A stretch of 64,000 bases of DNA, taken from the NCBI GenBank assembly GCA_963854835.1, contig OY978526.1:65448765-65512764 (forward strand). Direction: 5' to 3'. Of this stretch, positions 31,301-61,658 are shown piece after piece. Origin of the DNA: Megamerina dolium (lineage: Eukaryota; Arthropoda; Insecta; Diptera; Megamerinidae). The position numbers and the translations under genes are program-made. The stretch's first letter is position 1, and every line of letters starts with the position of its first letter. A model generated the notes under the pieces. The model was not told where the DNA came from and ran no database searches. It saw only the letters and a program-made list of their open reading frames with translations.

Positions 31301-33270
31301 ATGTAGGGGCGCACAAGCACAATAAACTTAAAAACACCCTGTCAATAGACAAATACCTCAGGAATCGCCTTTAGATGATTGAAATATAACATGGATCCTA
31401 ATCATTTATACCTTCCCAAGCATTGCCCGAGTACTCTTACCGGGTATCTCATCTGCTCTTCAGGGTCTGCCATAACAAATGAATGCAAACCCACTTAAAA
31501 GTCATACAAATCTATGCCAATGCAGGATATTAGATGTTTTGGTTAGGTCACCATTATTTGAAAACTTTAGTACGCACTCTTTCATTAAATTGGTTTCCTT
31601 TAATTATTAAGTTGGACTTTCATGTTTCAACTGCTTAACCGAATCGATAAACACCATACTATTTTTTTAAGAGAAAGCTAAAATGTGATATTTTAATTAA
31701 GAATTTTTGAAACACTTAAAAATTGCTACCAAAATCTTCTAATAGATCTCTGTGGCGAAACTTATAAAATTAGAGGCCATAAGTCGGCCGTTCAAAGTAC
31801 AGTTCCGATAACCTCTAATGGGTTCCGAATGCAACATTTTTTGAAATAAAGTTTCAAAGATCTAGCGCAGGAATTCTCTCTCGAAAACTCAAAGCAATAA
31901 TTTAGTTTGATGCTGACGCTTGACTTCTCTTGCCAAAGACCTTGTACGATATTGAAGAGGGGCACGAGTGGGGAAGAGATGCTTCCAAACTTCCACTATA
32001 CAAATGCTGTGTTATTATGCAAAGTCGAACATGCTTTGTTGAAATATCGAACTTGGGTATATTATTTTGTAGAGATAAACTCTCTTATCGGACTCATGAA
32101 TGGAGTCTCATTGTTTCTTGTCTTATATTTTAATTAAAGCATAAATAATATGTTATTTTTACATATTTATTAATTTATATTTATTTACATTTATATTGAT
32201 TTGTTTTTAGACCACGCTACGAATTAACATGCACGGATAAATTTGAATGGAGTCTAGATAAACGGCCCTGCCTTATGAAATGCGGTCATGTACAGGCACC
32301 AACAACAGAATTCTCCAGGGGAGGTGTTGATGTGAATATCACAGAGATGCCTTGGCATGTTGGCATCTATAGTCGTTTCGATGCAGAACGCTATAAGCAT
32401 AGTTGTGGTGGTTCAATAATATCACCACGTTTAGTTTTAACTGGTAGGTGAATATAATGTTGAAAGGCATTTTCAATCATACACAGATCTATGTAAATAT
32501 ATATATATTTTTTCTCATAGCTGCACATTGTTTTTGGGATCTTTCCAATCCAAATATTTCGACAATATATGATACATCATACTATCAAGTGGTAGCTGGA
32601 AAATATTTTAGAGATTACTACAGTGCTACCGAATATTTTCCAATACAACGACGAAATATATCGAAAATTTTGATACCACCAGAGTAAGTAGAAATGCATA
32701 CATATATCAATTCAGTTCATTCGTCTGATATGACTTTCTTTTATGTCTAGCTTCCAAAGTGCAGAGAATTATTATCAAGATGACTTGGCTGTACTGATAC
32801 TATATGAACATTTCATATTCACATATTTTATACGACCAGTTTGTATTGAGTTTTCTCATCCGAATGTGATCAGCAATATGCGTGGCACTTTTGCAGCTTG
32901 GGGTGCCGGTGATGATGCCAATATGGATGTGTTGAAAAGTATTGATATGTTTACATATAACTTTGATGATTGTAAGCGAACTCTTCAAGGAAAGACCACC
33001 AATTATAGATTAGCAAATGATAAATTCTGTGTGCACAATGATTTCGGTAATACAGCATGTCGTGGCGATAGTGGTGGCGGTTTTGTACTCAAAATGGAAC
33101 ACGTTGATCACGTCTATTATCGTTTAGTGGGCATTGTAAGTCATGCACCATTCAAGGTGCAGGATTGTAGCAAAGATGGCATTATAGCATTAACAAATGT
33201 TCAGAATTTAAAGGATTTCGTAGAGAAATATCGTTTAAGAGATTTACAAGATGCTCCGGATTTATTATAA
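28343..33270 (+). CDS. modSP: Modular serine protease (ModSP/HP14 type), catalytically competent
   Basis: Exons 28343-28400, 29338-29629, 29699-30219, 30289-30445, 32211-32443, 32521-32683 and 32751-33270 join in phase to 647 aa. Order: signal peptide (1 to about 19); LDLa repeats at 24-60, 65-101, 116-153 and 158-194, all with Cys/SDE patterns; Pro-rich linker; Sushi module (230-289); Wonton-like Cys-rich module (about 292-367); chymotrypsin-fold protease. The triad is visible: A-A-H423-C, D486-L-A-V, G-D-S582-G-G. Three residues before the active-site loop Cys-Arg-Gly, the S1-pocket position (189) is Thr, not Asp, so trypsin-like specificity is unlikely. In insects this family links recognition proteins (PGRP-SA, GNBP) to the Toll-activating and melanisation protease cascades and autoactivates in haemolymph. 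The first exon is inferred from a hydrophobic ATG segment, a GTAAGT donor and phase-1 match. The whole-gene resemblance to ModSP is strong; orthology is inferred. Confidence 0.92.
30494..30812 (+). mobile_element. tRNA-derived SINE, second copy (intron 4 of modSP)
   Basis: Starts GGGTGCCGTAACTCAATGG and follows the 1916-2284 copy through the B-box-like GGTTGAAACCC and the body landmarks CTGTCGGCAAGCGATTGGC, TTCTGCCGTTCGGAACCGG and GAAGCTCGGCCAA. It is about 50 bp shorter inside the body. No clear target duplication. It lies in the sense orientation of the host gene. Confidence 0.85.
30820..31420. repeat. Satellite-like units, second locus (intron 4 of modSP)
   Basis: Same unit landmarks as the array at 1680-3060: ATGTATGATCGAC followed by CATTAATTTTTT, CATACAAAATGAACG, AAGAATCG and CAGGAATCGCC. 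Starts fall near 30935, 31214 and 31363, consistent with units of about 140-150 bp. CACCCC/GGGGTG words form short palindromes. Confidence 0.55.
31790..32070 (-). pseudogene. Decayed LINE-A remnants in modSP intron 4
   Basis: Short blocks match the minus strand of LINE-A: GGGTTCCGAAT and CTCTCGAAAACTC (31815-31890), and a diverged version of the 10455-10565 RT block (31945-32060). Heavily mutated, with internal deletions. Confidence 0.6.
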
Positions 33271-34780: not shown

Positions 34781-37700
34781 ATGTTAAAATTAATACATCT
34801 ACAATTATTGCTGCTTACAGTTCTTTTAATTACTCAAAATGGTAAGTTTAAACAAAAGAAAAAAAAAATGTGTTTAACGATTTTGTTGGTCGTTTAACCG
34901 CTTCGCTGTAATATTTTGATGCTATGGCAATGGTGATGATTACAATATGATAATTATTGAAAATTACCCAAAACCGCAATCGATTAAATACAAAATTACC
35001 CACACAATGTATGAGTAGTATATTAATACGCTATAACACATATACATACATGTATATTTCCTCATATATATTTTTTTCTTTAGACAATCTTCAATTTCAT
35101 ATATACCCATGCTGTGATTCTAGATAATTAAAAAAATAGAAATTCATGGTATTGTTGTATTATTATGATTGTTATTATTATCTTGAGGATGGTTGTGAGC
35201 AGAACATCTTATTTTTTTAAATCAAGTGAAAATACAAAAAACCTAAGTTCAAAAAGTTTAACTTCAATAATACTGAAAAAACATTATATAGAATATACTT
35301 TTGTATGGGAGGTAGGCGTAGCTTTTATCCGATTACATTTTCAAATTCGTCTCTACCCAAGCAAATTATACGTTTACATTTCATCTTGTTACATTAAAGA
35401 GAGGTTTTGCGGTTGAGGGGTATGTGGGATAGGCATGGTTTTCATACGATTGTGTCAATTTTCGAGTATGATTATTAGTTAGTAAAAGTTATAGGAAAAG
35501 CAGAGCTTTAGCTTGATATATTGTGTTTATGTTTTCCCGCGCAAATTGTGAAAAACATATTAACAAAATCTTTTGTATGGGAGGTAGGCGTGGTTTTCAT
35601 TAGATTACACCTAATTTCTAATATATCCGTGCTGTGATCATAGTAAATTTAAATAATATGTGACAGATAGACATACATACATAGATCATGATTTTAGTGA
35701 ATGTTAATTATAATTATTTCAATAAATATATATTGTACTTTCCTAAATCTGTGATCTCTCCTTAGGGATAATTATAATGTTTGACCTATATGTAAAATGA
35801 CAGAACCCATTTATATTCGGATGCTCGAATTTTATCTCAGATCTATGTTTTTTTTTTGGCAAATTTACTTGGAATCGTTCCTCGATTTTTGTACTCTCGT
35901 TTTATGCTACACGATTTAAATACTATTTCGGGAAAAATTTATCTTACGCTAATTTTACATACATGAATACACAAATATACTTAATGATTACATTTTTTTT
36001 TTTTCTAAATAGAGAAATGAATCGAAATATGTTAAAGTGATATATTCCATACAAATTTGTAGATATTTTTTTAAAATAATCAAGATTTTAGATTAGGTAT
36101 ATGTTTATATCATATACCGCATGATGTATTCTGTTGAGGTGGTACTACATATATTGATGATCGAATATTTTTTAAATTTCAGAATTTCATATTGAATTTC
36201 TCGATTTCTCTATAAAAGTTGAACATTTTATATGGGTACTATATTTATTTATGAACGGAATTATTTTAAAAAATCTCCTTACAGTCGGCTGGGGCCGACC
36301 AAACTATACCCTGCATATGTAGATTTATATATAAAAAGGTTACTCGAATATCCAACTTTTCTTTTATTTCCACTTTTCGAGAAACAATTTTTGCATATAC
36401 TACTAATTTACACCCGAAATATGGTTGACTTTGACGAAGTAAAAGGATTTTAAGATAATTCCGAGGCTTAGTATGGGAGCTATATAAAAAGTGGGCGTGG
36501 CTTACCACTTTCTAGTAAATCCAATTAATTTTTCAATGTTAATCCACACCTTAAATTTGGTGTCCTACGTTGAATAGTTTCTAAGTTATGGTGGTTAACA
36601 TTTTTGTTTAATTTCCTCAACTTTGTATGGGAGCCACAATAAGAAGTGGGCGTGGTACGCAGATTTTTCGCCAGATTATTTCCGACTACGATATTAATTT
36701 AAGTGTCAATTATGGTTATTGTAGACATAAGATTGCCTAAGTTACAGCTGTTTCAATTTAAAATTTGTATGGGGGCTACGATAAACAGTGGGCGTGGTGC
36801 GCCCATTTCCTGTGAGCCTAGTTGCTCGTACAATACTAATCGACACCTTAAATCTCGTTATTCTACGCTGAATAGTTTGCAAGTTATAACCGGTAACATT
36901 TTTTTTAATTTCCGCAACTTTGTATGGCAGACCCAAAAAGGAGTGGGCGTGGCACATTGTTTTTCTATGCCATATTATTTCTGACTAGCGTGTTAATCTA
37001 AGTGTCAATTATGGTTATTTTAGACAGAAGATTGTAGAAGTTACAGCAGTTTCAATTTAAAAGAAGTACAGACACTTTGTATGGGAGCTACGCTAGAAAG
37101 TAGGCGTGGCTCATCCACTTTTGGTGAGGTTATATAGTAGTATAATATTACTCTATGTGCAAAATATTGTTGTCCCAGGTGGTATATTGTGTGAGTTATA
37201 GCAAGTTAAAGATTTTGAAAATTTCGAGGTTAGTCGCTTTGAATGCTTGGTGTGGGCGTGGTTATTGACCGATCATGCCCAATATCAATCCCCTCCGTAC
37301 CCTTGGATCATAGATTACTTATGCCAAATTTCATCGAAATAGCTCAATATTTACTCAAGTTATCGTGCGAACCAGCCAGGTGACAGACAGACGGACGGAC
37401 GGACGGACGGACGGACGGACGGACGGACATCGTTAAATCGAAAATTTAATCGACGCTGATCACGAATATATATCCATGTCTATATCTCCGGAGATTCCTT
37501 CAAGTGGACACAAACATCTGACCGAAATGAATATACCATGCATATTGCATTATGCAGGGTATAAAAATGCTGATACTCTCCATAAAGATTTTACTATTTT
37601 TGTTTATAAAATTGAAATATTTCTATAAAGGCTTTAATTTTTCACGATTTTTTTATCGTAAATTTATTAAAAGATCGACTTTGTAATTGGTTTTCTTATT

Positions 37701-40700
37701 TTTAGATTAAACTTGTCAGCTATCGTCAGCTACTTTATCTTGTTTTGGTGTAAAATTATTATTATGTGTATAGGAATATGCAGTGAAAAACAAAAAAGAA
37801 AAATCACACAATTGCAATATGTAGACTGAAAGATCAGTTATTAACAAATTTCATACCATGGGGAATGTACCGCATACTTGTTACTTAATTTGGTATGATT
37901 ATTATTTTAAAAGAATATTTTTGATAGAAAAAGAAATAGTTTTCCAGCATAATCCGAAAAATTCGAATTTATAAATCATACCCAATTCCAATGATAGATG
38001 ATTAAAAACTGACATGAAAACGAAAATCAAAGAAAAAGTGATATCACTTAATTTTGTTGTATTCCTTTGTTATTATAAATTCTGTGCTCTCGCATAATTT
38101 TGACATACTTACAATGTTACTATTCCCATACAGAAAATGAATTGTGAATTATGAATATATTCATCGTTGTGCTTTTAAGTTAATACTAACAAAACTCACA
38201 CCTACCCGCTAGTGTAGTCGGAAGCCAAATGCCACTAAACGACAAAATTGTCACCATACCTATCTACTTTACTATCCGCTAGTGATGCAGAGCTGTGCCA
38301 ATTCAATATCGAACATATCACGTCGTTCATAACGATTTCTGCAAATGCCGAAAATATGAAAAACGAACGCGAAAGGTATAGCTATTCCACTATTCGTAAC
38401 ATACTAGCTACTTTATTGTCTCCTAGTAATGCACAAATGCGCCAATTCAATGATATACATGCTCATCGTGAACTACAGTCGTTGAAAAATCGAATATGTT
38501 GGGCGAAAACCGACCATTCCTTTTGATACTCTATTTTTATTAATTTGCAGAATTGTTGAGGGGCGTAAATTTTACATGAGGTAGATTAAAATTTTAGACG
38601 TTGAATGCATATCGCGCATGTTTTACCATCGTTCGCTCGATTTCTGAAACATTATAACATCTATCACTTATTATGTATGTAACAATTTCTAAATCACGCA
38701 CAAATTGTATTATTTCTGTAATGGACTGTCAAATAACAGATAATGTTTGAATATTTTTTCGTCTTCGGAAAAAAAAGAATATATTTTTTCTCACTTTTCC
38801 GTAAATAGTTATTTCGTACAAGTCATTTGTTGGTGTTTTACAGCTCTCGAAATGGCTAGCGACAGTTATCTCCAAGGGAGACAATTAACATCATCCTAGG
38901 GCATGAACATGTTAAATTTGATAGTTGAAAGCAAAGAAAGAAGATTGAACAGAGACTAGCGAACTAGTGAATTCTATAGTTATAACTAGTGAATTCGGTA
39001 GTTCGTCGCTAGCTACTCTCACTGCAGGGTAACTTTAATTACCAATTTAAAAATTGCCACCATTCATAGTTGAATTTTTAGCATCTGCTAACTAGTATCA
39101 ACTTTGTAAAAAACTTGCATACTTTCAGGATAAACAGATTCTATTCATTTAAAATATTTTTAAGAATAGGAATATACATACCACCTTGATCAAAAAGTTC
39201 CCGGAATAACCACCGTGTGGCGCTTCCATCGTTCCAATTTGAGTTCTGTTTTTTTGTTAAGTTGGTACATCTGTTGTTAATATTCTCTCTAAATATTAGC
39301 GTAATAGCTTGACATTTACAAAAGTTACGTAGCCAAAAGTAGATTTATCTCAGTGCTTCCTGCGATTTCTACATTACTTCCTCTCGGCTGTTAGAACGCG
39401 TTCCCCGTAATGGTTTTTTGACTCGATTGAACAGAAAGAAGTCACAGGGAGCCAAATCAGGTGGATTCGGTGACTGTTGGATGGTATTCGTTGCATTTTA
39501 CGTCAAAAAATTACGAATAATGATGGCACTGTGCGACGGTGCGTTATCATGGGCACAATTTTTAGTTTAACCTCAGAACTTAAGATGTTACTTCAAACGA
39601 CTATGAATATGCGCAAATCACTTTTATGTCATAACGATATTTTATAATAACAAAAATTTCACACACACAGTGGTCTTTATGTGGACAGTACAAACAAACA
39701 TACAAGTTAATCATTCAATTTAACCTATACTCGTACCTAATCTACAACACATGGCAGTATTATTATTATGACATTCCATTCGAAAAAGAACAGAAAAAAA
39801 AGCAATAAGTTTCTCCCATAATGTAAAGTATACAAATTTTTTCTTATCAATCCGTATTTCCCTTATGTATAACATTGGCAATTTTGAGGCAATTGAAGCA
39901 ATTTTAATTCGGCATTTACATTTACGTAGTTACAGAACGACAAAATAATGGGCTGCATGAATAAAATTTAACATTTTGTGGTTTAAACAAATTATTCGCG
40001 GATTTAAATGTACGTATACAGTGAACCCTCGGTTAACGAACTCTCCGCTTAACGAATATTTCGCATTATGAACAAAATTTTTTGTTCAAGAATATTTCGC
40101 TCAAAGAACGCTGTATAACGACCAACAAAAAAGAACGAAAGAAGTGTTTAAAGCAAGCAAGGGCTGGTTCGAAAATTTTAGAAACATACTGGCTTTACTC
40201 TGCTTTTGTGTGTCAATTGAAGAGGAGATTTGAAAATAAAACCGTTCCTAATCTATCATTCAGAGAATCCACACACTTTCAAAAAGCATTTTTTTTTACA
40301 ATATCAGTCCAAGTGTCATATGGAGGTCCAACAGTAATGCATGGGTGACACGTGTCGTCTTTACTTATGGAGTCAATAAAGTTTATGCTCCGTTTTGAGA
40401 TGGATTTACCACTTCATGCCTTGGATGTTATGCACAACATCCACAAGAGATCTCATTGAAGAGCTCAAATTCATAAAAATTCACTTTTAGCCTCCTAACA
40501 TCTAACATCTAACATCATTATTTTAGCCTATGTACCAGCATGTTATTTCTAACTTCAAGAAGTTCTACAATAAAGAAGTTTTCAAGCGTTGCTTTGAAGT
40601 GATGAATGGAACCAATCTCACACTAAGTGTTTTGGAAAGATCTTTTCGACATCATTGCGTGTATCAAAATTATTGGAAAGGCATGGGAAAGTGTTACCAA

Positions 40701-43700
40701 GAGAATTCTCGAATATTCCTGGAAGAAATTTTGTGCTTTACAGGAGACGTACAGAAGACTTTATCAGACGAGGAGGTAACAGACGAACAACAACCTTCTA
40801 GCGCACTTAGAGTAATTCTAAAAGTGGCTGTGGCATCATAAGAAGCATCAACCCAATCAGACAGTGACTAAACCCCGCCACATATTTATTCAATAATAAT
40901 GCTGTGATGCATCTGCAACAAAATTATCTTAAGAAGCTTTTTGTTAAAGAAGAACTAGCTATTCATATAGGTATTATTAAATAGTTCTTTTTGCATACTT
41001 TTCGTTTGTTCCGCCGCAATTTTGTCTTATTTCGTCCTATACTCAGTTCCAGTTATTTTTTTTTTTGTATCTCTCATGGTTTTGGAGCTATACGAGTTAA
41101 ACACGTCCGTCAGATTATACAATTTGCAAACTGAGTTCCGATATTGTTTGACATTTTCCAAAAAAAACTATGCAATTTACCGAACCGATTGGAATTTCTT
41201 TTTATGTATGTAGAGTTGAAGGATTAAAAAAGTGACTGGAATCAATGTTTAAAAAAATATATATTTTTCTAAGGATTTATGGACAAATATGTGCGATGGT
41301 ACTAAGACAACAAATGTAAAAAAATTATCAGAAAAAAAAAAATTTCGCGTGTTTTCTTTTAAGACGGCCTTGGAGAATATATTGCATATTATAAAATTTT
41401 TTGAAAATATCACTCAGAGGACGTGATTTAGATTGGTAATACCTAATTTGATTTCATTTTTAAATATGTTACAATTTAAGAGGATTTTAACTGTATCCCC
41501 GTTTTGATATTTCATAGGTAACTATTTTGCCACCTAAATTTAATGGGCAGATGAAATGTTTCGTACGTGATTGGCACTTGAAAAAATATCAGTTGTCCTC
41601 AAAAAGCCATTTATATCAGCAAAATCTGCTTTCTCATGTTTGCTATTACCATTTTTAGACATTACAGGTTATGTTCCTTCGATTTTAAAACAAATGGGTG
41701 CTATGATTAGAAACAAAATGGTTTTAATGTGGTTCCGATTTTCAAAGCCTTGCCCATATGTGCCATATAATGAAATTTGAGTACTATTTCGACCTGGAAT
41801 GTATTATTTTGTTTTACATTGATTTATATGAGAATAATGGTTTTGCCTAATGAACGTTTCGCATTACGCCATAAATCAAAAAAATCCTAACTAAAGGCCT
41901 GTACTACTTTTTTTAAACCAATAGACCAATAGTTAAATAAAGGCATATGATGAATATAATAAAAGCTAAACATTCTTCTGCCTATAACTCGAAATTTAAT
42001 TTTCAAGTCTTTTAAAGATAGGTCTGATCTATGTATACTCACGTTTAAAAATATTGTGCAATAATAACTTGCAGAACGGAACGTAAGAGGAATACTTTTT
42101 ATTGCCATACGATTCCGCTTTGTTAAGTCTTAAGAAATTTCATTAGCAATAACTAGGGTAGATTTTTGACCGTTGTTCAATTTTCTATCGGCGTTTTTTA
42201 AGACTTTTCAAAAAAGGTACAAGAACTACCTCTTATGGGGGTCATAGAGAGTTAATTTGTTCCACAAAAATTTCCCCGTTATTTTCTCCATAAGATTGCT
42301 AAACAAACCCTAAATCTGAGAAGTAGGGAACACATGATTTCATATACAATATTTTGCCAAACGGTGCGTTTATTGAGAATTTTGGTATCATTAGCATACA
42401 TGTACATGGCAAGACTAATGTGACACAACACATTTTTGTTAAATTTTGTCACTGAGCCCTGGATGAAATATTGCCAATTGCTTCCGAAAATAAATGGCTG
42501 CCATGTGAAAGAACAAATTGCTTTGATATTGTGAAGAAATGTTGTTGAATTCGTCGAACCACTGGAAGTCAAATGCAAACAATTTTTAAGTCTTCAACAA
42601 TGTAAAGAATAAATTATCTCACTCTCTCGCTATCTCTCTCACTCTTTCAAGCACCGAGCAGAGCAAATGAATGCAACAGCAAATACCAATGGTGTTGCGA
42701 CAGTGGCGAATGTATAAATAGTGAGTTACGTTGTGATGGTATCAAACAGTGTCGTGATGGTTCGGATGAAATCGCCGAACATTGCATACATATGCAATGT
42801 CCAAAATATGCATTTCGTTGTGCATATGGTGGATGTATTACAGGTACATATCAATGCAACGGTCGACGTGATTGTGCGGATAATTCGGATGAGACAGAAT
42901 TTCTGTGTGTAAAAACGGAGTCGGAAATTGAACGAGAAATACGTGGAACTTGTAGGTGAGTCGAATGATAAACCTACTGTCAATGTATTACAATTTTTAA
43001 CTTGTAACGATTTCAATTGTATGCCTTGCAGTTCCCCCACGGCTTTGCAATGCAAATCGGGCGAATGCATACGCACCGAAGATAGTTGTGATGGCTTCGT
43101 GGATTGTCGTGATGGCTCCGATGAGACGGTTGAGCTATGCAGTCATCTCTATTGTCCATCGTATGCCTTTCACTGCGGCTATGGTGCTTGCATACGTGGT
43201 ACAGCTAAATGTGATGGTAATTTGGACTGCGCAGATGGCTCGGATGAAGCGGCCGAGCTATGCGGTTATCAGCGACGCAATATATCGGCAACTACGGACT
43301 CACCCCCGATCACGACAACGTCCACAGCTAAAGCACCAGCACGATTTGATGTCTGTATTATACCGTATAGTCGTAGGAGTCTGATTGTCAAGAATGATAA
43401 GACCGGAGAGATTATCGAATTGGGCGAGCATGTTACAGAGGGTACTAAAGTGAGTTTTGCGTGCGCAGCAGATTGGCAATTACGTGGAGCAAAGGATAGT
43501 GTATGCAATCGTAATGGTATTTGGTCACATCGTCTACCCACTTGTATAAGTAAGTAGGAAGGAGGGAAATTTTTCCATGATCGCTAATATTACTTTACCT
43601 CTGCTCCTCCCTTTTTTTATAGAATATTGCTCGGTAAATACATTGAAGCGTGGTTTATCGACTGAGGCAACTTGTTATCACCATAGGAAACCGGCAAATT

Positions 43701-44320
43701 GTTTATTACCTTTACCTGTTGGGGCTAAGGCACACATCACCTGTAGACCGGGTTATACGTTATTGCCGCAGGGAAAGCAACGTCTTCAGAAAGTACTCAC
43801 TTGTGATCCAGATGCCGAATGGGATTATCCAAAATTTCAATGTACGCCCGAATGTGGTACATTGGCCGATGACGCCGATGATGACTATTCATCTGCGACG
43901 ATAATGCCATGGGATGTGAGTATTTTTATGCGTACATTTGAACCCATATTTCAACGTAAATGCAGTGGTGCTATTATTTCACCAAAAATGATCATAAGTG
44001 GTATGTAATATAATGTGATAATATCGTATAATACATAATTCCCATTATTTATTGCACAATATATTTATCTCTAATACTCGTAGCTGCTAGCTGTTTTATA
44101 AGTAACGATTCGGATCATCCGCATAGTGCAGTATTCTATAATGTTGTCGAAGGTTATCATGTGAACGATTATGCGCAAGATCATCAAAACGCCGATCGAA
44201 TAGCGCATAATATATCCGAAATTGTACTATCCGAGTAAGTTACAGATGCACATTGAAATAATTAAAGCATGATCATTGAAAACATATAAACAAAAAAGTG
44301 TATCTAAAGAAACGTGGTAG

Positions 44321-44393
<73 letters not shown>

Positions 44394-46583
44394 TATATAA
44401 GTAATTTTTTTTCAACTTTATAGTCTGCTTGTCCAGGAACAATTGAATAACAGAAAATTTACAAACTAAGAACTAAGCCTGTCCAACTGAACGGAATTGC
44501 TGATGCAAACTTTTTGCTTATTGAAATAACATAAACATAAAACAGTGCCAGAGGTTTAATGTTACTTAGCTGTGACGTAACCACAAGTCAATGGCCGTCG
44601 CTTTGCTGGACGATAGCGTTAACTCCTCCCTCGTTTAAGTTAAGGCCGTCCTCGGCCTTCTTAAGACTGTCGATAATAGTTTGGACGTGGTATTGTTGAC
44701 GGGCTTTCCTCTTTTTTAAAGATAGTCTATGGAGGAAGAAACACACGAGAACGATGACAACTACGGCAGAAATGAACATCCAAGGTCTGGTCTTTAGCTC
44801 TTCTCTTATCTGACCGATATAGTGCAGGTTTTCGATGTTCATCCTTTGTAGGTACGGTAGGCTCAGTATTTCTTGATGTTGTGTAATATTTATTAAAGTG
44901 GATGTAGCTGAGGCTGGAGACCTTCTAACGATGTTTCTTTCGTTTCGATATAGTGATCCGTTGATTTTTACTTCGTCATTGAAGGTGAGCAAATATGTTC
45001 CGGAGACGGTTTTCTCGGTACCATCGGTGCTTTGTACTATGGCAGTTTCGTCGTTGATGATAATGACTCCATCGTCAACAATTGTTAGAGGGTTCAGATG
45101 GCTCGGTCGGGTGCTGCAGTGAGCGACACCGCCAGCATGAAGCTGTTGAGCACACGTCGGCCCAGGTATTTGTCTACAGAATGTTGTTGTCAGCGTTGCG
45201 CTGCAATTTGCGATTACTATCAGGCGATTTCCGCAGTCCGCGATAAGGTTACCTCCAGCAAAATGGAGAATTGTAGAGTTATGTAGGACAGGATATAAAG
45301 TTAGTTTCTTACAGACTATATCTGGCTTAGGATACTTAATAATAAAATGCAAAAATTGATTGTCTAATAAAACTTTTACATAGGAAACTTCTATTACATC
45401 CGCTACAGTTATATTTGCAGAGTGCTCATTGATTATAGTTTTCAAATCATTAGAGTCCAAAATTTGAGGGTTTGCCAATCCGATCTTCGCGAGAGTAATA
45501 GACAAAGTTAGGCTTTCTATTTCTGAAATCAAAATTCTGTCTCTTGCGAGCAGTGTTTCATACAAATGTTCTGTGTCAGTTTTTGTTTTTGTGCTATTTA
45601 GGATGATATTTACTGTGTCCGTCAATTTGTTTATTTGTTCTTGTGTCTTTGTATTTATAAGTACCTGTCTATTTTCTGAGTCAATTAGTTCTTGCTGACT
45701 AAATTTTATTTTTTCGAAGTCATCAAAATCTGGCGTCCCTGCAACTATTTTCAAAGCGGTGCCTAAAAAATTGATGCTTCTCGCATGTCTGTGGTGAACG
45801 TCCACAGTAGACAAAAGTGTCCTTATCTGTTCGATGTCTGAGTCCAGTATCTTTCTCATATGTGACTGAGGAAATAGGTTCGTAAGTCCTTTGGTTTCAT
45901 CGGCCATTTCTGAATACGTTGCGAGGTTTGATGTATGCCTTAGATATCCAAATTCCCGCCAGATCGTCACATCTCCATCTATTATTGGAATATAGTTCGC
46001 ATGGGAATAGTCGGTCAATTTAGCTGTCGATACCGCGGCGAAGAGAAGTACAATTATAATCCTAAACGAAATACCAAACTTTGAGTAGTGGAATATTAAA
46101 CTTAATTATCTTAAATTGTCCTTGTGAACCACCCTCCCTTTTATAAGAACTGTTGTTCCTAGGTCTGCTTGCACTGTTTCTTTGACATACAGGGGTGTAA
46201 GTTTATTTCCCAGCCTTCTATTTGTTTTTACCATTACCTTATCTCCTACCTGAAAATTTCTGTTCTTTCGGGTTTCATTAAGCTTTTGCATTTGGAGTTC
46301 TTGGGCTTTATGAACCCTATTTCTGATTTCGGTCTCTAATTCCAAGGGGGACGCATGGATTACGTCAATCGGACGTCTATTCGTGACTGAATGGATGGTT
46401 CTATTGTATTCTATGGTAGACTGGAGTATCAATTTTACTGTATCGTCAATGCATTTCCCTATTTTTAAGCATCGTGCGATCTCTAGGAGGGTACTGTGAA
46501 ATCTTTCCACTTGTCCATTTGACGTGCTATGGAGTGGTGGAGCGTTTATTATTTGCACATTAAACTGGGTCCGCAGTAATGAA

Positions 46584-46618
<35 letters not shown>

Positions 46619-49600
46619 TTGTCTATAGAAGTTAGAAAATATTTTTTGTCTGTTGAAAATATATCGATGTGAAGCATTTCGCCCACGTACGAAGGAATAG
46701 GTGTTTCGCCAAGGACATGCTTTTTCGGATGGCGATCATATTTGGCTTTTTGACAGATTTTGCAGCTTGCGACAACCCCGTTTGCTAGTTGGGTCATCTT
46801 AGGAAAAAAGTAGTCCTCTAAAATTTGCTTTGTGTTTTCTTGCGCAGCTCTATGAGCCCTATTATGTTCTGTAAGCACGATTTCTCTTTGCTCATCTTGG
46901 TTGAAGATGTCAACTACGAATTTTTTTGAATAACGAAAGGCCGTTGATGGGAATGTTTCAATTAGTCTATGTTGAATCAGTGCTAGCGTTGCAAGGTCGC
47001 AATGAATAGCATTTACTACGTCTTCTTTTACTGCGTCGCACACTGCTTCAAAAAGCGTTTTTCTATCCGAGAAATATATGAGATGCCTGGTTTTTTTTCC
47101 AAAAACTATAATAGTGCGCTATGATGGAATAGTGTCTTCCTTAATTATTATCTGGTTTTGAAAACAGTTGAGCGGTTTGTCAGTAGGCTCAACAGTGTAA
47201 GTTAATGACATTTCGCTGTGCATTGTGGCTAAATCAGATTGTGCATCCTCCTCGAGGGCATGAATATTTTGTCGTGACAACGCATCTGCAACATGATTTT
47301 CTCTACCTGGCTTGTAGAAAATCTGAACATTGTGCTCATCGATAAAGGCTTTCCACCGCTTTATTTTAGCGTTTGGATTTCGATCCGAAACCGCAAACGT
47401 AAGAGGCTGGTGGTCAGTAAAAATGTTTAGATTTTTAACGCCATACAAGTAGTTCCTAAGGCACTTTAGAGCCCACACTATGGCAAGCAACTCTCGTTCG
47501 TTGGTTGCGAAATTTGTTTCCCTATCTTTCAAGGTCCTTGAAATCATCGTGATTGGTCTTCCATCTTGAGACAAGACTGCCCCTAAACCACACGATGAAG
47601 CGTCTGTTGTCAAATCAAACGGCTTTTTGTAATCCGGATAGAGTAACATGACGTCTTCGGAAGTCAACACTTCTTTTAGTCTCCTAAAAGCTTGGTATTG
47701 ATTTTCGTCAAGGTTGATTGGTAGTTTCTTTGACTGAGTAGCGCTTATCTTGCCGTTTTCGCCTTTAAGTATGTCTGTTAAAGGTTTTGCTATTGTTGCG
47801 AAATCCTTAATGAAACACCTATAGTAGCTAGCCAGACCCAAGAAGGACCTTACGTTAAATAACGTAGTGGGTTGCTCGTAATTTTGAATAGCCTCAACCT
47901 TGCTAGGGCTCGTCGCGATTCCGTTCCGAGACACCATAAATCCCAAATATTCGACCTTTTCCTTGAAAAAGTTTGACTTTTCGCGAGAGACCCTCATGTT
48001 AGCTTCGTATAAGCTATCCAGGACCTAAGCGATATGTTTGACATGATCTCTCATGTTTTCTGAAAAAATAATTACGTCGTCAACGTAAACATAGCATGAT
48101 TTTCCTATTTGCTCTCTGAGCACATCGTCAATCGCCCTTTGAAAAATGCTAGGAGCATTTTTTAAGCCAAAAGGCAGCCTACAGAACTCGTATTTGCCAT
48201 TTCCCACTGAGAATGCAGTTTTTTCTCTGTCCCGTTCGGCGAGTAAAATTTGGTGAAAACCTGACTTGAGGTCAAGTGTTGTAAAATACCTTGATCTTCC
48301 TAGGTTTGACAATATAACGTTGACATTCGGAATTGGGTATTTGTCGGCTATAGTTTTTGAATTTAATTTTCTAAAGTCTACAACAAGTCGTTTTTTTTTA
48401 TTCCCGTATTCATCGGTGCCCTTTTTGTCTACTACCCAGATGGGATTGCTATATGGAGACCTTGATGGCCTTATTATGCCATCCTTTAATAAATTACTAG
48501 TTTCTTTATTAATAAAATCAGCCACTCCCATTGGATATGGGTATAGCCTTGAATAGACAGGGTCCTCATTTTCAGTGCGAATAGTTGCCACAATATTAGT
48601 ATTGAAGGGAAGTGCTTCATTTGGTTCTGCAAACACCCCCATCCGATTTCTCAACATTTTTCGGAACTCCTCTGATATTTCCTGAGGAACCTCTATATTT
48701 TCTAAACCTATGAAGTTTACATTTTCGCAATTAAGAAATTGTATGGGCTCTGGTCTTGAATTTACTCTCAACTCTTTGTTCTTAAAGTCCAGCGTTGCGT
48801 TTACTTGAGTCAATAAATCAAGGCCAATTATGCCATCGAATGTGGAGAGGTTGTGCAGTATAAAAAAGGTAGCATTTGTATTAAATAAATTTATAAAACA
48901 TTTTTGTTTAACGGTAGTAGACCCATGGATAGATTTTACTATAAATGGTTTTTTGGCTGATTTTATATGCTTTAATTCAGGCAATGGCTTAATATAGTTT
49001 TTCGATGCTCCCGTATCTACTAAAAATTTGATTACTCTCCCTGCGATCCTTCTCTCTATGTACGGGAGCAGGGAGTTTTGTCTAAAAAATTAATTTGGTC
49101 GTACTCAGCAAATTCATCATTGATATCCTCAAGCTCCGCACCTGCTTCGATTTGATAGCTCTGATTATTTTGGTCGGGTGGGGTCTGCTCTTGACCTAAA
49201 TGGTGAATTCTTTGTTGCTTTGGTCCCGTGAATCGTGCGGTCCCGCTATTTGGTCTCTTTACTGCCTGTTCTTGACCCTGATAGTTTTGTTGGGGTACCT
49301 GCCACTGATTATTTTGGTTTTGTGTGGGTAGCCTAAAGCGTGAAGATGGATCAACGTCCATTGGTTCTTGTCTTCGTTGATTTACATTAGAAGGTACCTG
49401 TCTTTTATTGAAATAAGGGTTTTTCCCTTGTGAATTTTCATTATTACTCCCAGCTATTTTCTTATCCCTAGGCTGTTGCTTAAGTTCGATTTTTTGAGCC
49501 CTGTCTTCTATACTCCTGGCATAATTGCTTGCAAAATTATATCTTTCATGATTTGCTTCGACCTCCTGGGCCAAAGCTAAAGCGGAGGGAAGATCCTTGG

Positions 49601-50899
49601 GCCTTGCTGAGAAAAGAACATCGCTAAGCGATTTTTTAGTTCCTGATATAAAGACACGCAATGCGTCCTGTCTGTATTTTTCATTTAGTGACGTGGCGAC
49701 AATGTTGTCGTATGTCATAATAGTCTTATTTGTAAGAAGAGTCAGTTTTTTTTCCACTTCATCGTAGTATTGAAGAAGTGTTAAATTCCCCTGACGAAGT
49801 GTGGCTAATTCTTGCTCGATCAAATAGATTGGTCTCTTATCAGCGTATGTGAAGTCGAGTCTATTTATAATAGCCTTGAAATTAAGTGGGGTATCGAAAG
49901 AGGCTAGGACCATATCGGCCGGGCCCCTTACTTTATTTCGTATAATACCGAGAGCCTGGTAGTGAACAGAGCTTCCATCGTAATTTTTATAAACTTTGTA
50001 CGCGGTGTTTGCCGCTTTTCTCCACGAGACATACGTCTCGTGTTTTCCTTCGAAGTCTGGTAGGGATTTCACTATATCCAGAGATTCTTTGCACGTTATA
50101 TTTTCCCTAATATCTGTCTCGCTAAATGTCTCTATTTCCGGCGCACTAACCGTTGTTTCCCTAAGACTCCTACTGACATTTTCTAATTTTTGTTCGAATA
50201 TTTTTTCCTGAGCTGCAAGTGCGCTGTTAACGGCACTTTCAATTATAACTTTAAGTTGATCAGGGGTTGCCATGTCAAAACTTTTTTTGTCACTGTTTAC
50301 GTTTAAGTTACCGAAATTCTTTAGCAGCGCATCTATTTCACTGTCACTCATTAGTCGCACAAATTCGGACGGCAAATAATTTTTTCTAAAACCATGTGAG
50401 CACTCTACTTACATTTCTTAATAGTTTTATCCTTAAAGCTATTTGTAACTATCGATGTTGAATATTCCGCTTTCGTCGGTCTGACGTGTATGATGCGTAG
50501 TATTAAATGCCGTTGCCGCTTTCGTCGGTCTGACGTATATGATGCGTAGTGTTTAGTGCCGTTGCCGCTTTCGTCGGTCTGACGGATAGCGTTGAGTTGT
50601 ACGAATACCCGTTGGGCGCCAGTAATTTTTATTCAACTTTATAGTCTGCTTGTCCAGGAACAATTGAATAACAGAAAATTTACAAACTAAGAACTAAGCC
50701 TGTCCAACTGAACGAAATTGCTGATGCAAACTTTTTGCTTATTGAAATAACATAAACATAAAACAGTGCCAGAGGTTTAATGTTACTTAGCTGTGACAAC
50801 GTTTGTTTGTTCAGCAGCGGCCACACATTCTGCTGACTGAGCACTGCAGTCACGTAACCACAAGTCAATGGCCGTCGCTTTGCTGGACGATAGCGTTAA

Positions 50900-50998
<99 letters not shown>

Positions 50999-52275
50999 TA
51001 TGTATAATTGAAACCATTATACCTTACGTATAGTTTTCATCAACCGATACATTTCGATTTACATTATGATCCTCGAATTATAATATCGAATTTTTATATG
51101 GAATATAATTTTTTCGACATTATTACAAAAAGATCGAAATCTTAATTATTTCCAAATTTCTTTTCGGCTTTAATGCAAAATTTTCAACAGTAATATTGAA
51201 AATATTATTGGGGGGTAAAATCAGAGGAACTGAATGTAATTTTTAAAGGGTTCGTGAAATGTGAAATGCATATATGAACGAATTATAGCCCTTTCTGGTA
51301 GGTTTTCAACCTTTAAAAGTCGGACAATTAACAACTCTGCTATGATAAAAATACAATTTTGGCGGTTCTAAAAGGGTTAAGGAAAAACTTTTTCTTTGTC
51401 CCGACAACGTTTGAATATAATCTTTTAAACTAGGGGTGAAATTTTGATACTTTTTTTCGTGATCCATCGTAGTATGCATACTTCTTTTTCCTCGACCCAA
51501 TGCAATACCAGATATAGTTTTTGCAAACCGATGTGATCACGTTATATGATCACTGAACCTTACACAAAAACACATGATGATCTTGCTTTATCAGTTCAGG
51601 CACGTTATCTATGTTTGCTAGCATCAGCATGATCTATTTTAGCGAACTGTGGCTATAATTTAATCCAATGCAATCTCAAGGAAATATAGTTATAGGAGAA
51701 TACGTCGTTGTCAAATGTCGAAAACGATCCAAAATATTCACATTTAATTTTGCCAAAGTGAAAATTGTCATTCTATCGGAATACATATTGGGCAATATAC
51801 AATATATGAACATAGATATACACTGAATCATGGTTTATTAAACTTAAACCAAAAATCTTTTTTAAAATTATAAACTAATTATTCTCATCATTTATCTTAC
51901 AGTTTCCTAAACAGCGATCGCACCACCGTAACACACGACCTTGCCATTTTAGTGCTGATTAATCATTTTCAATTTACACCATATCTTAAACCAATTTGTG
52001 TAGATTTTCTAAATTATAAACTTGGTAATGCCAATCAAGTGTTACAGCCATATGAAACCAATGAGCAAGTTTTAAGGGACACACAGAATATCACAGATAT
52101 TGGTTCAGCGATCGGTCATAGCAGTGGTAACAATGATGGCGTGAATGATCGTCATATGACATTAGTAAATATTGTTAGTAGGAAATATGAAAATAGTCAA
52201 ATCGGTTTAATCAATGTTCATGTATTTAGGCAATTTATCAAAGAACAATTAGCACGTTATAATTATCTGCTCTAA
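34781..52275 (+). CDS. ModSP-like pseudoprotease (serine protease homologue), tandem paralogue
   Basis: Exons 34781-34841, 42652-42955, 43032-43549, 43623-44000, 44084-44234 and 51903-52275 join in phase to 594 aa. The layout matches the upstream modSP gene: signal peptide (Leu-rich, 1 to about 19), LDLa repeats (first at 28-65, second 70-106, two more to about 195), Sushi, Wonton-like module, protease-like domain. The protease is dead: A-A-S423-C replaces A-A-H-C, and G-H-S-S-G (542-546) stands where G-D-S-G-G should be. About 33 residues between the middle strand and this loop, with their Cys and the W-G motif, are missing. Asp483 is kept. No stop or frameshift interrupts it, so it is probably a working non-catalytic protein, for example a binding partner or decoy in the cascade; that role is inference. 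It lacks the intron that splits the Wonton module in modSP. Intron 1 (7.8 kb) and intron 5 (7.7 kb) are full of transposons. Confidence 0.87.
35080..35690. repeat. Duplicated GTATGGGAGGTAGGCGT repeat (intron 1 of the paralogue)
   Basis: Two blocks about 275-500 bp apart share TTTTGTATGGGAGGTAGGCG with a TTTTATCCGATTAC / TTTCATTAGATTAC continuation. The flanks TGCTGTGATTCTAG (near 35110) and TGCTGTGATCATAG (near 35628) also repeat. Words resemble the larger repeat just downstream. Confidence 0.55.
36305..37563. mobile_element. Dispersed repeat with inverted termini, GGGCGTGG motifs and GGAC tandem run
   Basis: TATACCCTGCATA at 36305-36317 and TATGCAGGGTATA at 37551-37563 are perfect 13-bp inverted ends. 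Inside, four or five diverged units of about 150-200 bp carry TATGGGAG/GGGCTAC..AGTGGGCGTGG (near 36475, 36630, 36770, 36920 and 37080). Near the right end is a GACGGACGGAC run (37390-37428). This architecture is common in fly non-autonomous elements with internal subrepeats. It has no coding capacity. Confidence 0.65.
37566..39180. other. Intronic AT-rich DNA with a diverged internal duplication
   Basis: No gene recognised. At about 38262-38470 two diverged copies share TCTACTTTA / AGCTACTTTA, then TC-CTAGT-ATGCA and TGCCAATTCAAT. They yield an open + frame (38248-38526) with a weakly repeated protein pattern, probably chance or relic. Paired ACTAGT words near 34510 and 38955-39010 could mark the ends of an old element, but this is weak. 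Confidence 0.4.
39185..39660 (-). pseudogene. mariner-family transposase remnant
   Basis: Read on the minus strand, the region gives mariner C-terminal motifs in broken frames: H-D-N-A-P-S-H, then P-P-D-L-A-P-C-D-F-F-L-F, then K-K-P-L-R-G. The second block is the third part of the D,D34D catalytic centre. Stops interrupt it and the N-terminal half is missing. The end sequence GATCAAAAAGTTCCCGG near 39188 resembles a mariner terminus. Confidence 0.8.
40018..40870 (+). pseudogene. Tigger/pogo-type transposase remnant
   Basis: The left end CAGTGAACCCTCGGTTAACG (40019-40038) has the character of a pogo/Tigger terminus. The + frame 40530-40841 holds the C-terminal DDE-domain sequence P-M-Y-Q-H-V-I-S-N-F-K-K, in which Tigger proteins usually read M-D-Q-G-V-I: the last catalytic Asp is Tyr here. 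The N-terminal and central regions are mostly gone (one short frame at 40082-40348). No right terminus was found. Confidence 0.75.
40871..42651. other. Remainder of intron 1 of the pseudoprotease gene
   Basis: AT-rich sequence with no recognised coding or repeat family. The last 40 bp before exon 2 are a CTCTCT pyrimidine tract that fits a 3' splice site. Confidence 0.45.
44323..44399. repeat. TA microsatellite, left flank of the errantivirus
   Basis: Nearly pure TA run, interrupted once by TACATA. It continues on the other side of the insertion at 50902-50995, so the provirus entered a pre-existing TA array. Confidence 0.9.
44400..44624 (-). repeat. 3' LTR of the errantivirus (225 bp)
   Basis: Matches 50621-50901 apart from a missing 56-bp block after TTAGCTGTGAC and a few substitutions. 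The env stop codon lies inside it at 44588-44590. Confidence 0.92.
44588..46098 (-). CDS. env: Errantivirus envelope glycoprotein (env)
   Basis: An open frame of about 500 codons. A hydrophobic signal-like stretch (I-I-I-V-L-L-F-A-A-V) sits at its start (about 46030-46060). No in-frame ATG precedes it; in gypsy, env comes from a spliced mRNA, so the start codon is probably supplied by an upstream exon. Basic R-H-A-R (furin-type site) is followed by S-I-N-F-L-G, as in the F-type fusion proteins shared by errantiviruses and baculoviruses. A coiled-coil-like region follows, then a C-terminal membrane span (near 44745-44800) and a short basic tail. The frame appears uninterrupted and ends within the 3' LTR. 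Its role would be membrane fusion between follicle cells and germ line, or infection; function in this copy is unknown. Confidence 0.85.
44625..44635 (-). promoter_or_regulatory. Polypurine tract of the errantivirus
   Basis: On the minus strand CGAGGGAGG lies immediately before the 3' LTR start AGTTAAC, the normal position for plus-strand DNA priming. Confidence 0.75.
46106..49088 (-). pseudogene. pol: Errantivirus pol: protease, reverse transcriptase, RNase H, integrase (broken)
   Basis: Minus-strand order: protease with D-T-G-A (49009-49017); RT with F-R-K-L-N and Y-V-D-D (about 48076-48087); RNase H with T-D-A-S-S and the T-D-H-Q block; integrase with an H-x-H...C-x2-C zinc-binding region (about 46750-46870), C-terminus in 46106-46558. 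Breaks: a TAG codon at 48025-48027 just after RT, a TAG at 47119-47121 after RNase H, and loss of the integrase core between the first catalytic Asp region and the N-G-Q-V-E-R motif. That gap is filled by a TTA triplet run (46584-46618) and the frame shifts. Expression would normally follow a -1 frameshift from gag. It cannot make a working integrase. Confidence 0.9.
46584..46618. repeat. AAT/ATT triplet microsatellite inside the integrase region
   Basis: About eleven uninterrupted AAT units on the + strand, read as poly-Leu on the minus strand. It lies exactly at the junction where the integrase core, including the second catalytic Asp, is missing. Confidence 0.9.
49056..50351 (-). CDS. gag: Errantivirus Gag protein
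   Basis: Open frame of 431 codons from the first ATG at 50351. The N-terminal half has the helical capsid-type character of gypsy-group Gag (around Y-K-N-Y-D and L-R-Q-G-N-L-T-L-L-Q-Y-Y). The C-terminal third is rich in Gln, Asn, Arg and Pro. There is no CCHC zinc knuckle, which is usual for errantiviruses. It would assemble particles and bind genomic RNA. A longer open frame reaches 50375, but without an ATG. It appears intact. Confidence 0.88.
   Translation of the reverse strand: MSDSEIDALLKNFGNLNVNSDKKSFDMATPDQLKVIIESAVNSALAAQEKIFEQKLENVSRSLRETTVSAPEIETFSETDIRENITCKESLDIVKSLPDFEGKHETYVSWRKAANTAYKVYKNYDGSSVHYQALGIIRNKVRGPADMVLASFDTPLNFKAIINRLDFTYADKRPIYLIEQELATLRQGNLTLLQYYDEVEKKLTLLTNKTIMTYDNIVATSLNEKYRQDALRVFISGTKKSLSDVLFSARPKDLPSALALAQEVEANHERYNFASNYARSIEDRAQKIELKQQPRDKKIAGSNNENSQGKNPYFNKRQVPSNVNQRRQEPMDVDPSSRFRLPTQNQNNQWQVPQQNYQGQEQAVKRPNSGTARFTGPKQQRIHHLGQEQTPPDQNNQSYQIEAGAELEDINDEFAEYDQINFLDKTPCSRT
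49083..49089 (-). promoter_or_regulatory. Candidate -1 frameshift slippery heptamer between gag and pol
   Basis: On the minus strand the heptamer T-TTT-TTA lies in the gag frame about 27 nt before the gag stop. Slipping back one base there leads into the open pol frame that reaches the protease D-T-G. The overlap and frame relation fit; no downstream structure was assessed. Confidence 0.65.
50459..50598 (-). repeat. Tandem repeats (about 60 bp) in the errantivirus leader
   Basis: GCTTTCGTCGGTCTGACG occurs three times (near 50468, 50518 and 50568), followed in the first two by T-TATGATGCGTAGT and GCCGTTGCC; spacing is about 50 bp. They lie between the primer-binding site and gag, the same place where gypsy carries its reiterated insulator sites. 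The sequence does not obviously match that insulator motif. Confidence 0.85.
50608..50621 (-). promoter_or_regulatory. Primer-binding site of the errantivirus (tRNA-Lys type)
   Basis: Minus strand TGGCGCCCAACG directly follows the 5' LTR. It is complementary to the 3' end of tRNA-Lys (…CGTTGGGCGCCA), as in gypsy. Confidence 0.85.
50621..50901 (-). repeat. 5' LTR of the errantivirus (281 bp)
   Basis: Begins AGTTAACGCTATCGTCC (minus strand) and ends AATTACT beside the primer-binding site. It contains the 56-bp block absent from the other LTR. Confidence 0.92.
50902..50995. repeat. TA microsatellite, right flank of the errantivirus
   Basis: Pure TA run of about 94 bp directly after the LTR. 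Confidence 0.9.
50996..51902 (+). other. 3' part of intron 5 of the pseudoprotease gene
   Basis: AT-rich with no recognised element. It ends in TTATCTTACAG at 51892-51902, the acceptor for the last exon. Confidence 0.5.

Positions 52276-53922: not shown

Positions 53923-53995
<73 letters not shown>
53636..53995. repeat. TATATGAAAATATA-type minisatellite and TA array
   Basis: Irregular units of TATA plus AAAAAGAA/GTGAATATA pass into a pure TA run up to 53993. Similar units resume at 58024-58075, suggesting one array split by later insertions. Confidence 0.75.
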
Positions 53996-53996
<1 letters not shown>

Positions 53997-59915: not shown

Positions 59916-60499
59916 GTCTTTCCACTTTTATAAAAAAAAAAATACAAAATATGCCTGTTATACTCGTTCGAAGATTCCATTTTATTTTTTAACAACGCGT
60001 ACTTTTTTCTGCGATTAAAATCACTTGTTGAATGCACAATACATCAGAAAAAATAAAAATAGTTCCTTTATCTCCCACGAATCATTTTTGTACGCAAAAA
60101 GCGCTTACTGTGAGACTATTGAAAAAATAACGCACGAACTTATGGGCTGATCTGATACTTAAAACTATACTGAGATCAATTTTAAAACATAATACAGTCC
60201 AAATTACTCAGTATGAGGTCAAATATACCGGTCTTTTTTTTTTTGCATATAAGAACTCTTTAGCAAGCATGCTATTGTTTATTTAGGGATGAGAGCTGGC
60301 AAACTATTTTGATAGCTTCAAAAAGACAATTTGAACAACATTTGTCGGAGCTTTACTAATTGTAATTGAATAAAATTGTAGTAAACCCTTGTGGTGTTAC
60401 AGCTAATTTTCTTCAGATCGGGAGGAATAAAAAGATGTGGCCAATACATAACTCACACTCAAAAAAGTAAGTATATATCTTAACAGCATGTTTTAAATC
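59916..60499. other. AT-rich non-coding stretch
   Basis: No gene or repeat family recognised. Confidence 0.5.
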
Positions 60500-61655: not shown

Positions 61656-61658
61656 TTA

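What the first reader, a model, noticed from the sequence alone, without database searches (positions are those of the whole stretch)
34781..52275. Initiator protease gene duplicated into a pseudoprotease that keeps all recognition modules
The paralogue keeps the four LDLa repeats, Sushi and Wonton-like module of ModSP/HP14, but has Ser in place of the catalytic His (A-A-S-C), G-H-S-S-G at the active-site Ser loop and about 33 residues removed before it. The frame is intact across six exons. Non-catalytic clip-domain homologues are known as cofactors in insect immunity. A dead version of the apical modular protease, sitting in tandem with the live one, would be a candidate decoy, scaffold or recognition-only subunit. 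The role is inference.
Basis: partly seen in the sequence, partly recalled or inferred. Interest (0 to 1): 0.78.

Follow-up and report, generated by a model that had tools for sequence, protein, structure and literature searches.

The report
Ancient catalytically dead ModSP in flies
Next to the fly gene for the enzyme that starts the Toll immune alarm lies an old sister gene whose protein keeps the sensing parts but cannot cut; related dead copies occur in several fly families, so it is probably a working regulator and not a broken gene.

Summary
Gene B (34781-52275, + strand) is an intact six-exon, 594-residue paralogue of the ModSP-type protease gene A just upstream, with a ruined protease domain. 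Dead ModSP relatives occur in Tephritidae, Diopsidae, Calliphoridae, Muscidae, Glossina and Drosophilidae and form one clade (22 rows, 100/99) inside schizophoran ModSPs. They share a shortened activation segment (11-18 residues against 22-24), loss of the Ser195 stretch and, in 28 of 29 rows, loss of His57. Structure models of two relatives keep the S1 fold. LDLa2-4, Wonton and, where present, Sushi are nearly as conserved as in live ModSPs; the protease tail is strongly relaxed. Corrections: 'GHSSG' is probably not the catalytic loop, and the clade does not keep every module (calyptrates lost Sushi, tephritids doubled LDLa x4 plus Sushi). Caveats: no transcript evidence, no orthologous DNA for dN/dS, a young gypsy-type provirus in intron 5, an inconclusive local codon test, and recognition modules that alone do not recover the clade. 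Best guess: a secreted pseudo-initiator competing with ModSP for the recognition complex; a positive cofactor is the main rival.

The parts
34781..34841 (+). gene B (dead ModSP) exon 1, signal peptide
   Evidence: ATG, hydrophobic stretch, GT donor, phase 1
42652..42955 (+). gene B exon 2: LDLa1, LDLa2
   Evidence: AG/GT borders, Pfam Ldl_recept_a
43032..43549 (+). gene B exon 3: LDLa3, LDLa4, linker, Sushi
43623..44000 (+). gene B exon 4: Wonton-like module and start of the protease-like domain, shortened activation segment
44084..44234 (+). gene B exon 5: A-A-S-C at the His57 site
51903..52275 (+). gene B exon 6: T-H-D-L-A (Asp102 kept), truncated protease tail, stop codon
44400..50901 (-). 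gypsy-type (errantivirus-like) provirus in intron 5 of gene B, antisense; LTRs 44400-44624 and 50621-50901; RVP/RT, RNase H, integrase zinc-binding and env-like pieces in separate frames; flanked by TA repeats
   Evidence: LTR comparison (2 mismatches in 227 aligned bases, plus about 55 bases present in one LTR only); Pfam on pieces; flanks
60480..61716 (+). decayed partial copy of gene B exon 6 and its 3' flank (source 51973-53014): two stops and frame-shifting indels in the exon part
28343..28400 (+). gene A (ModSP-like, intact triad) candidate signal-peptide exon
   Evidence: the one candidate printed by a scan of 15001-29330 for hydrophobic phase-1 exons
29338..30445 (+). gene A exons 29338-29629, 29699-30219, 30289-30445: LDLa x4, Sushi, first part of the Wonton-like module
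32211..33270 (+). gene A exons 32211-32443, 32521-32683, 32751-33270: rest of the Wonton-like module and protease domain with A-A-H-C, D-D-L-A, G-D-S-G-G-G

Best explanation
Gene B encodes a secreted, non-catalytic homologue of the apical Toll/melanization protease ModSP, a member of an old schizophoran clade of pseudo-initiators. Shown here by sequence comparison: descent from ModSP, a shortened activation segment and loss of the catalytic apparatus across the clade, retention of LDLa2-4 and Wonton, and a predicted S1 fold in two relatives. Inferred: through its LDLa/Wonton (here also Sushi) modules it still docks on the recognition complex (PGRP-SA/GNBP-like) or on ModSP itself, but it cannot be activated by the usual cleavage or cut anything, so it takes ModSP's place and limits ModSP crowding and autoactivation, a competitive brake like vertebrate MAp44/MAp19 against the MASPs.
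For: Intact six-exon frame; the five introns shared with gene A have the same phases. Dead relatives in six fly families. The clade of 22 rows has support 100/99 in a 48-row tree, nested inside schizophoran ModSPs with the syrphid outside (16 rows, 99/98). In a 62-row alignment all 29 dead rows have gaps at the Ser195 columns (five are fragments) and 28 of 29 lack His57; of the 33 other rows all keep His and Asp and 31 keep Ser. Activation segment 11-18 residues in 22 of 22 dead rows, 22-24 in 29 of 29 others. Mean identity over 36 species pairs, live/dead: LDLa4 0.580/0.560, Wonton 0.323/0.325, LDLa2 0.609/0.542, LDLa3 0.539/0.486; protease tail 0.337/0.184, lower in 36 of 36 pairs; Sushi among the seven species that keep it 0.347/0.325 (21 pairs). 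Two relatives' models keep the S1 fold. ModSP autoactivates with peptidoglycan, PGRP-SA and GNBP1 (PMC10732536, passages); MAp44/MAp19 may compete with MASPs (PMC4451739, passages).
Against: No transcript, binding or genetic data. Recognition modules alone do not recover the dead clade (0% of 200 bootstrap trees), though they do not reject it (AU p 0.275). The codon test of exon 6 against its decayed copy is not decisive (omega 0.75, interval 0.37-1.83; differences at codon positions 18/11/13). Calyptrates lost Sushi, LDLa1 is relaxed (34 of 36 pairs lower), and among the seven Sushi-keeping species Wonton is lower in 16 of 21 pairs (0.358/0.314), which weakens 'same docking surface'. G. morsitans keeps His. 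No melanogaster-group dead member was seen among the named rows of the 97 hits, so the function may be dispensable there.
Confidence: 0.42

Rival explanations
1. Positive cofactor: the dead protein is a scaffold or allosteric partner that helps ModSP autoactivate or present its substrate.
For: SPHs are known as promoters: PMC5718610 (passages) says that activation still occurs with GD mutants lacking a catalytic residue and that Sphe is needed to fully activate Toll; two clip-domain SPHs act as a cofactor for PPO1 activation in Drosophila (PMC10540698, title in a search listing). The S1 fold is kept in two modelled relatives.
Against: Nothing in the sequence tells it from a competitor; the best-kept parts are sensor modules, the protease tail is the most relaxed part.
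Confidence: 0.25
2. The clade left the Toll cascade: an LDLa-rich secreted binding protein with another ligand (microbial, lipoprotein or reproductive).
For: Sensor modules remodelled by lineage: doubled LDLa x4 plus Sushi in five tephritid members, Thr-rich linker in place of Sushi in calyptrates; in D. tropicalis the dead and live proteins come from contigs of different length, so linkage to ModSP is not universal.
Against: The module order of ModSP and a foldable S1 domain are kept; in Teleopsis, Cochliomyia, Eurosta, Calliphora and D. sulfurigaster dead and live members sit on contigs of the same length.
Confidence: 0.18
3. In this species the gene has just died: the provirus in intron 5 stops correct splicing, and the frame looks intact only because too little time has passed.
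For: LTRs differ by 2 of 227 aligned bases; weak codon-level signal in exon 6; a partial copy of exon 6 downstream is decayed.
Against: The insert is antisense and inside an intron; all splice sites of the model are intact. Would not apply to the other species.
Confidence: 0.12
4. Gene-model artefact: the exons do not form one gene.
For: No transcript was available; introns 1 and 5 are about 7.8 and 7.7 kb.
Against: Phases match throughout, and the whole-length architecture is the same in annotated relatives.
Confidence: 0.03

Closest known systems
ModSP (Drosophila) / HP14 (Manduca), apical modular serine protease
   Same: Signal peptide, four LDLa, Sushi, Wonton-like module, S1-type domain; same phases at the five introns shared with the neighbouring gene A
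   Different: Activation segment shortened, His57 replaced, Ser195 stretch missing and the part after P-I-C 50 residues shorter than in gene A, so no protease activity is expected
Insect serine protease homologues (SPHs), e.g. clip-domain SPHs and Spheroide
   Same: Serine protease fold without a complete catalytic triad, in or near immune cascades (PMC5718610, passages)
   Different: No clip domain found by Pfam; derived from the apical modular protease, with an LDLa/Sushi/Wonton sensor part; large deletions, not only point changes
Vertebrate MAp44 and MAp19 (non-enzymatic relatives of MASPs)
   Same: Recognition part of an initiator protease without its enzyme, which may compete with it (PMC4451739, passages); the best-ranked structural matches of both models are MASP/C1r/C1s CCP-SP fragments
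   Different: Those arise by alternative splicing of MASP genes and lack the protease domain (recalled); here a separate gene keeps a folded dead domain. No homology of the sensor modules is claimed

Membership tests
ModSP/HP14 family (by descent) | four LDLa, Sushi, Wonton, S1 domain in this order | tested here: met
   Pfam: 4 LDLa, Sushi, Trypsin over cut-off; Wonton by position and cysteines only, no model of it was used
ModSP/HP14 family (by descent) | groups with ModSPs in a tree | tested here: met
   full-length tree: clade of 22 inside schizophoran ModSPs, 100/99; recognition modules alone leave the deep forks open
ModSP/HP14 as an active initiator protease | catalytic His, Asp, Ser | tested here: not met
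   Ser at the His site, Asp kept, Ser stretch missing
ModSP/HP14 as an active initiator protease | zymogen activation segment of normal length | tested here: not met
   18 residues from Cys1 to P-W in B, 23 in A; 11-18 in 22 dead rows, 22-24 in 29 others
ModSP/HP14 as an active initiator protease | binds PGRP-SA/GNBP complex and autoactivates | not testable with these tools
   needs protein
Serine protease homologue (SPH) | lacks at least one catalytic residue | tested here: met
Serine protease homologue (SPH) | keeps the serine protease fold | tested here: inconclusive
Serine protease homologue (SPH) | expressed, secreted protein | not testable with these tools
   signal peptide judged by eye only
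Decayed pseudogene | stops, frameshifts or broken splice sites | tested here: not met
   none in B; 0 of 2000 neutral runs at distance 0.10 or 0.18 stayed free of stops, 50 of 2000 at 0.05

The most novel reading that the evidence does not exclude
Flies evolved, once and early in Schizophora, a dedicated gene-encoded pseudo-initiator that sits on the pathogen-recognition complex in place of ModSP and sets the threshold of Toll and melanization, an insect counterpart of MAp44; its sensor half is rebuilt in each lineage (doubled in tephritids, Sushi traded for a Thr-rich linker in calyptrates), as expected of a part that tracks microbes, and it may be missing from the melanogaster group, which would explain why it was overlooked.
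Probability: 0.3. Interest if true: 0.8.

Novelty: new variant of a known kind. Interest (0 to 1): 0.6.

Why it matters
How the first protease of the insect Toll and melanization cascade is kept quiet is, as far as I recall, little known beyond serpins such as Necrotic (which inhibits ModSP; PMC10732536, passages). A conserved dead copy of that protease, here encoded beside it, would be a natural brake or cofactor and can be tested in the existing reconstituted cascade. Databases name these proteins modular serine protease(-like), LRP2-like or sortilin-related receptor-like, so immune-gene counts in pest and vector flies may include enzymes that cannot cut.

Tried and rejected
Recent local duplication: rejected. 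A-B synonymous sites are saturated (dS 1.8-2.6, or not computable for the protease N half) and relatives are spread over fly families. dN/dS across sister species: not possible, no orthologous DNA was at hand; A-B pairwise ratios (LDLa 0.13, linker plus Sushi 0.61, Wonton 0.41, tail 0.57) rest on saturated dS and are not used as proof.

Exon 6 against its decayed copy: in the exon 42 of 277 aligned bases differ, in the flank 208 of 727 (Fisher p 6.5e-6), in line with constraint on B, but a gappy AT-rich flank can inflate its count, the last part of the exon is nearly identical (conversion is possible), and the codon pattern does not support strong constraint. Reported as mixed.

Recognition-module tree: does not show one origin, does not reject it. 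The full-length clade may draw much of its support from the protease columns. The shared truncations argue for one origin but were noticed after seeing the alignment.

G-H-S-S-G as the Ser loop: MAFFT and HMM alignments place it elsewhere, but such a short degenerate tail cannot be registered with certainty.

Module comparison: the Sushi figure (0.312/0.241) is unsound, because the Cochliomyia and Glossina dead rows have a linker there; one search repeats four modules with the seven species whose dead member keeps Sushi.

Other copies elsewhere in the genome: the whole-genome protein search did not complete, so unknown. tblastn of A, B and two relatives on 154 kb around the genes (E up to 1e-4) found only A, B and the exon-6 copy. 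The Pfam trypsin search of the genome scored 150 of 497 candidates exon by exon and does not settle it.

Literature: ten searches gave listings, several of them capped (for instance 30 of 54, 15 of 128, 12 of 136, 15 of 1,088 papers); no listed title or abstract start describes a non-catalytic ModSP paralogue in flies. Read as passages: PMC10732536, PMC4451739, PMC5718610, PMC4555219 (no match for ModSP, HP14 or LDL). The library holds open-licence papers only.

Rows dropped: the 62 rows are hand-picked, nearly all dipteran, out of 224 listed proteins; the listings themselves were capped at 120 of 1759 and 120 of 1260. From the trees and module counts I left out Hermetia 993, Musca 781, Episyrphus 558, Ceratitis 581 and 589, D. 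palustris 1105 and short fragments; tephritid members were cut to their second LDLa half. For D. palustris 1105 (a probable fused gene model) only the first 530 residues were used.

Full report
What is there. Gene A (28343-33270) is a ModSP-like gene with an intact triad: four LDLa, Sushi, Wonton-like module and a protease domain with A-A-H-C, D-D-L-A and G-D-S-G-G-G. Pfam missed Sushi in the full-length protein A but finds it in the segment alone (34 bits against 20.7). Its first exon is a candidate only. Gene B (34781-52275) lies head-to-tail after it: six exons, all with GT-AG borders, 594 codons without a stop. The five shared introns have the same phases; gene A has one further intron (30446-32210) inside the Wonton-like module. 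In B, Pfam finds four LDLa, Sushi and a weak Trypsin match (26.9 bits against a cut-off of 20.6; 96.7 bits in A). The finding's coordinates and module list are right.

How dead the protease is. The His site reads A-A-S-C; the Asp is kept. A profile of 22 dead proteins was aligned with one of 29 others. The comparison gives three lesions. First, the stretch from Cys1 to the conserved P-W, where zymogens are cut, has 18 residues in B and 11-15 in the other 21 dead rows, against 22-24 in 29 of 29 others; in five tephritid rows P-W is missing and I used a neighbouring anchor. Second, in the 62-row alignment His57 is missing in 28 of 29 dead rows; Glossina morsitans keeps it, and in Eurosta the site is a gap. 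Asp102 is kept in 4 of 29 (B, Calliphora, Cochliomyia, Lucilia). Third, all 29 dead rows have gaps in the Ser195 columns, though five are fragments too short to tell. Of the 33 other rows all keep His and Asp, and 31 keep Ser; the exceptions are an Episyrphus isoform that lacks the segment and Glossina fuscipes with Arg.

An old family. The homologue search with B (1759 hits, best 120 listed), one with an alignment of 16 dead rows (1260 hits, 120 listed) and one with two Drosophila members (97 hits) gave dead relatives in Tephritidae (Bactrocera, Ceratitis, Zeugodacus, Rhagoletis, Eurosta), Diopsidae (Teleopsis), Calliphoridae (Calliphora, Cochliomyia, Lucilia), Muscidae (Musca, Haematobia), Glossina and Drosophilidae (innubila twice, virilis, montana, nasuta, sulfurigaster, busckii, palustris, tropicalis, Zaprionus). 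A full-length tree of 48 rows holds the 22 dead rows as one clade, 100/99, inside schizophoran ModSPs and with the syrphid Eupeodes outside; an earlier set of 45 rows gave 99/98 for 16 dead rows. A tree of the recognition modules alone leaves the deep forks open and does not show the clade, but holding it together is not rejected (AU p 0.275). In Teleopsis, Cochliomyia, Eurosta, Calliphora and D. sulfurigaster dead and live proteins come from contigs of identical length, which suggests the same chromosome; in D. tropicalis the lengths differ, as they do in Rhagoletis, Lucilia cuprina and D. busckii, where different assemblies or short scaffolds may be the reason (inference). Among the named rows I saw no melanogaster-group dead member; cluster representatives can hide names and three related rows are unnamed, so loss there is only suggested.

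What is constrained. Mean identity over 36 pairs of nine species, live then dead: LDLa1 0.589/0.452, LDLa2 0.609/0.542, LDLa3 0.539/0.486, LDLa4 0.580/0.560, Wonton 0.323/0.325, protease N half 0.377/0.302, protease tail 0.337/0.184 (36 of 36 pairs lower). Sushi has to be judged without Cochliomyia and Glossina, whose dead members have a linker there: 0.347/0.325 over 21 pairs of seven species; in that set Wonton is 0.358/0.314, LDLa4 0.589/0.573 and the tail 0.359/0.201. The pairs are not independent, and for Bactrocera and Glossina the live and dead rows come from different species. The family remodels its sensor half: five tephritid proteins carry LDLa x4 plus Sushi twice, calyptrates have a linker, often Thr-rich, in place of Sushi.

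Is B itself alive. A partial copy of exon 6 and its 3' flank lies 8.5 kb downstream (60480-61716). It has two stops, a 4-base insertion and a 7-base deletion in the exon part, while B's exon 6 is intact. Exon divergence is 42 of 277, flank 208 of 727, p 6.5e-6, but codon positions differ little (18/11/13) and omega is 0.75 with an interval of 0.37-1.83. At neutral distance 0.10 or 0.18 none of 2000 simulated copies of the B frame stayed free of stops; at 0.05, 50 of 2000 did; 0.18 is half the corrected flank distance of 0.36. Against this stands the provirus in intron 5. Its LTRs differ at 2 of 227 aligned bases, so it is young, and decay after its arrival would not yet show. It is antisense to B, lies between TA repeats, and leaves the splice sites untouched.

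How it may work. ModSP autoactivates on peptidoglycan with PGRP-SA and GNBP1 and starts the cascade to Toll and melanization (PMC10732536, passages). That the LDLa/Sushi part of HP14 binds the glucan recognition protein is recalled, not read. A protein with the sensor half, a shortened cleavage segment and no active site could occupy ModSP's place without firing. The vertebrate parallel is MAp44/MAp19, which may compete with MASPs for MBL and ficolins (PMC4451739, passages). A positive cofactor role is about as easy to imagine, since inactive homologues promote activation elsewhere (PMC5718610, passages). The sequence does not decide between them.

Novelty. Dead serine protease homologues are a known kind. 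A conserved dead clade of the apical modular initiator is not described in any title or abstract start listed by ten searches, several of them capped, in a library of open-licence papers only. I call it a new variant of a known kind.

Noticed in passing
44400-50901 (-): Young gypsy-type provirus with an env-like frame (Pfam Gypsy, PF07253) in intron 5 of gene B; LTRs differ at 2 of 227 aligned bases, and about 55 bases are in one LTR only.
   Followed up: partly
60480-61716 (+): Decayed partial copy of gene B exon 6 and 3' flank; a possible neutral yardstick.
   Followed up: yes
42652-42955: LDLa1 of gene B has an extra Cys (C35-C36), giving 39 Cys in all, an odd number; an intermolecular disulfide is conceivable.
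   Followed up: no
30446-32210: Extra intron in gene A inside the Wonton-like module, absent from gene B.
   Followed up: no
P0033, P0037: The Glossina fuscipes ModSP row reads G-D-R-G-G-G at the active-site Ser, G. brevipalpis G-D-S-G-G-G: the fuscipes protein may itself be inactive, or the sequence is wrong.
   Followed up: no
P0222: A further Ceratitis ModSP-like protein reads E-G-H-S-G-S-G (Asp194 to His) and comes from a contig of the same length (525363) as the dead P0002.
   Followed up: no
P0001, P0003, P0006: Dead tephritid ModSPs are named LRP2-like, Lrp2_3 or sortilin-related receptor-like in databases.
   Followed up: no
53900-54934 and 55202-57109 (+): Reverse-transcriptase frames just downstream of gene B.
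   Followed up: no
15864-17099 (+): 412-residue frame with two C2-domain stretches (Pfam PF00168), probably a separate host gene.
   Followed up: no
G000:C2:65572473-65573009: Trypsin-domain match about 60 kb downstream of the window.
   Followed up: no
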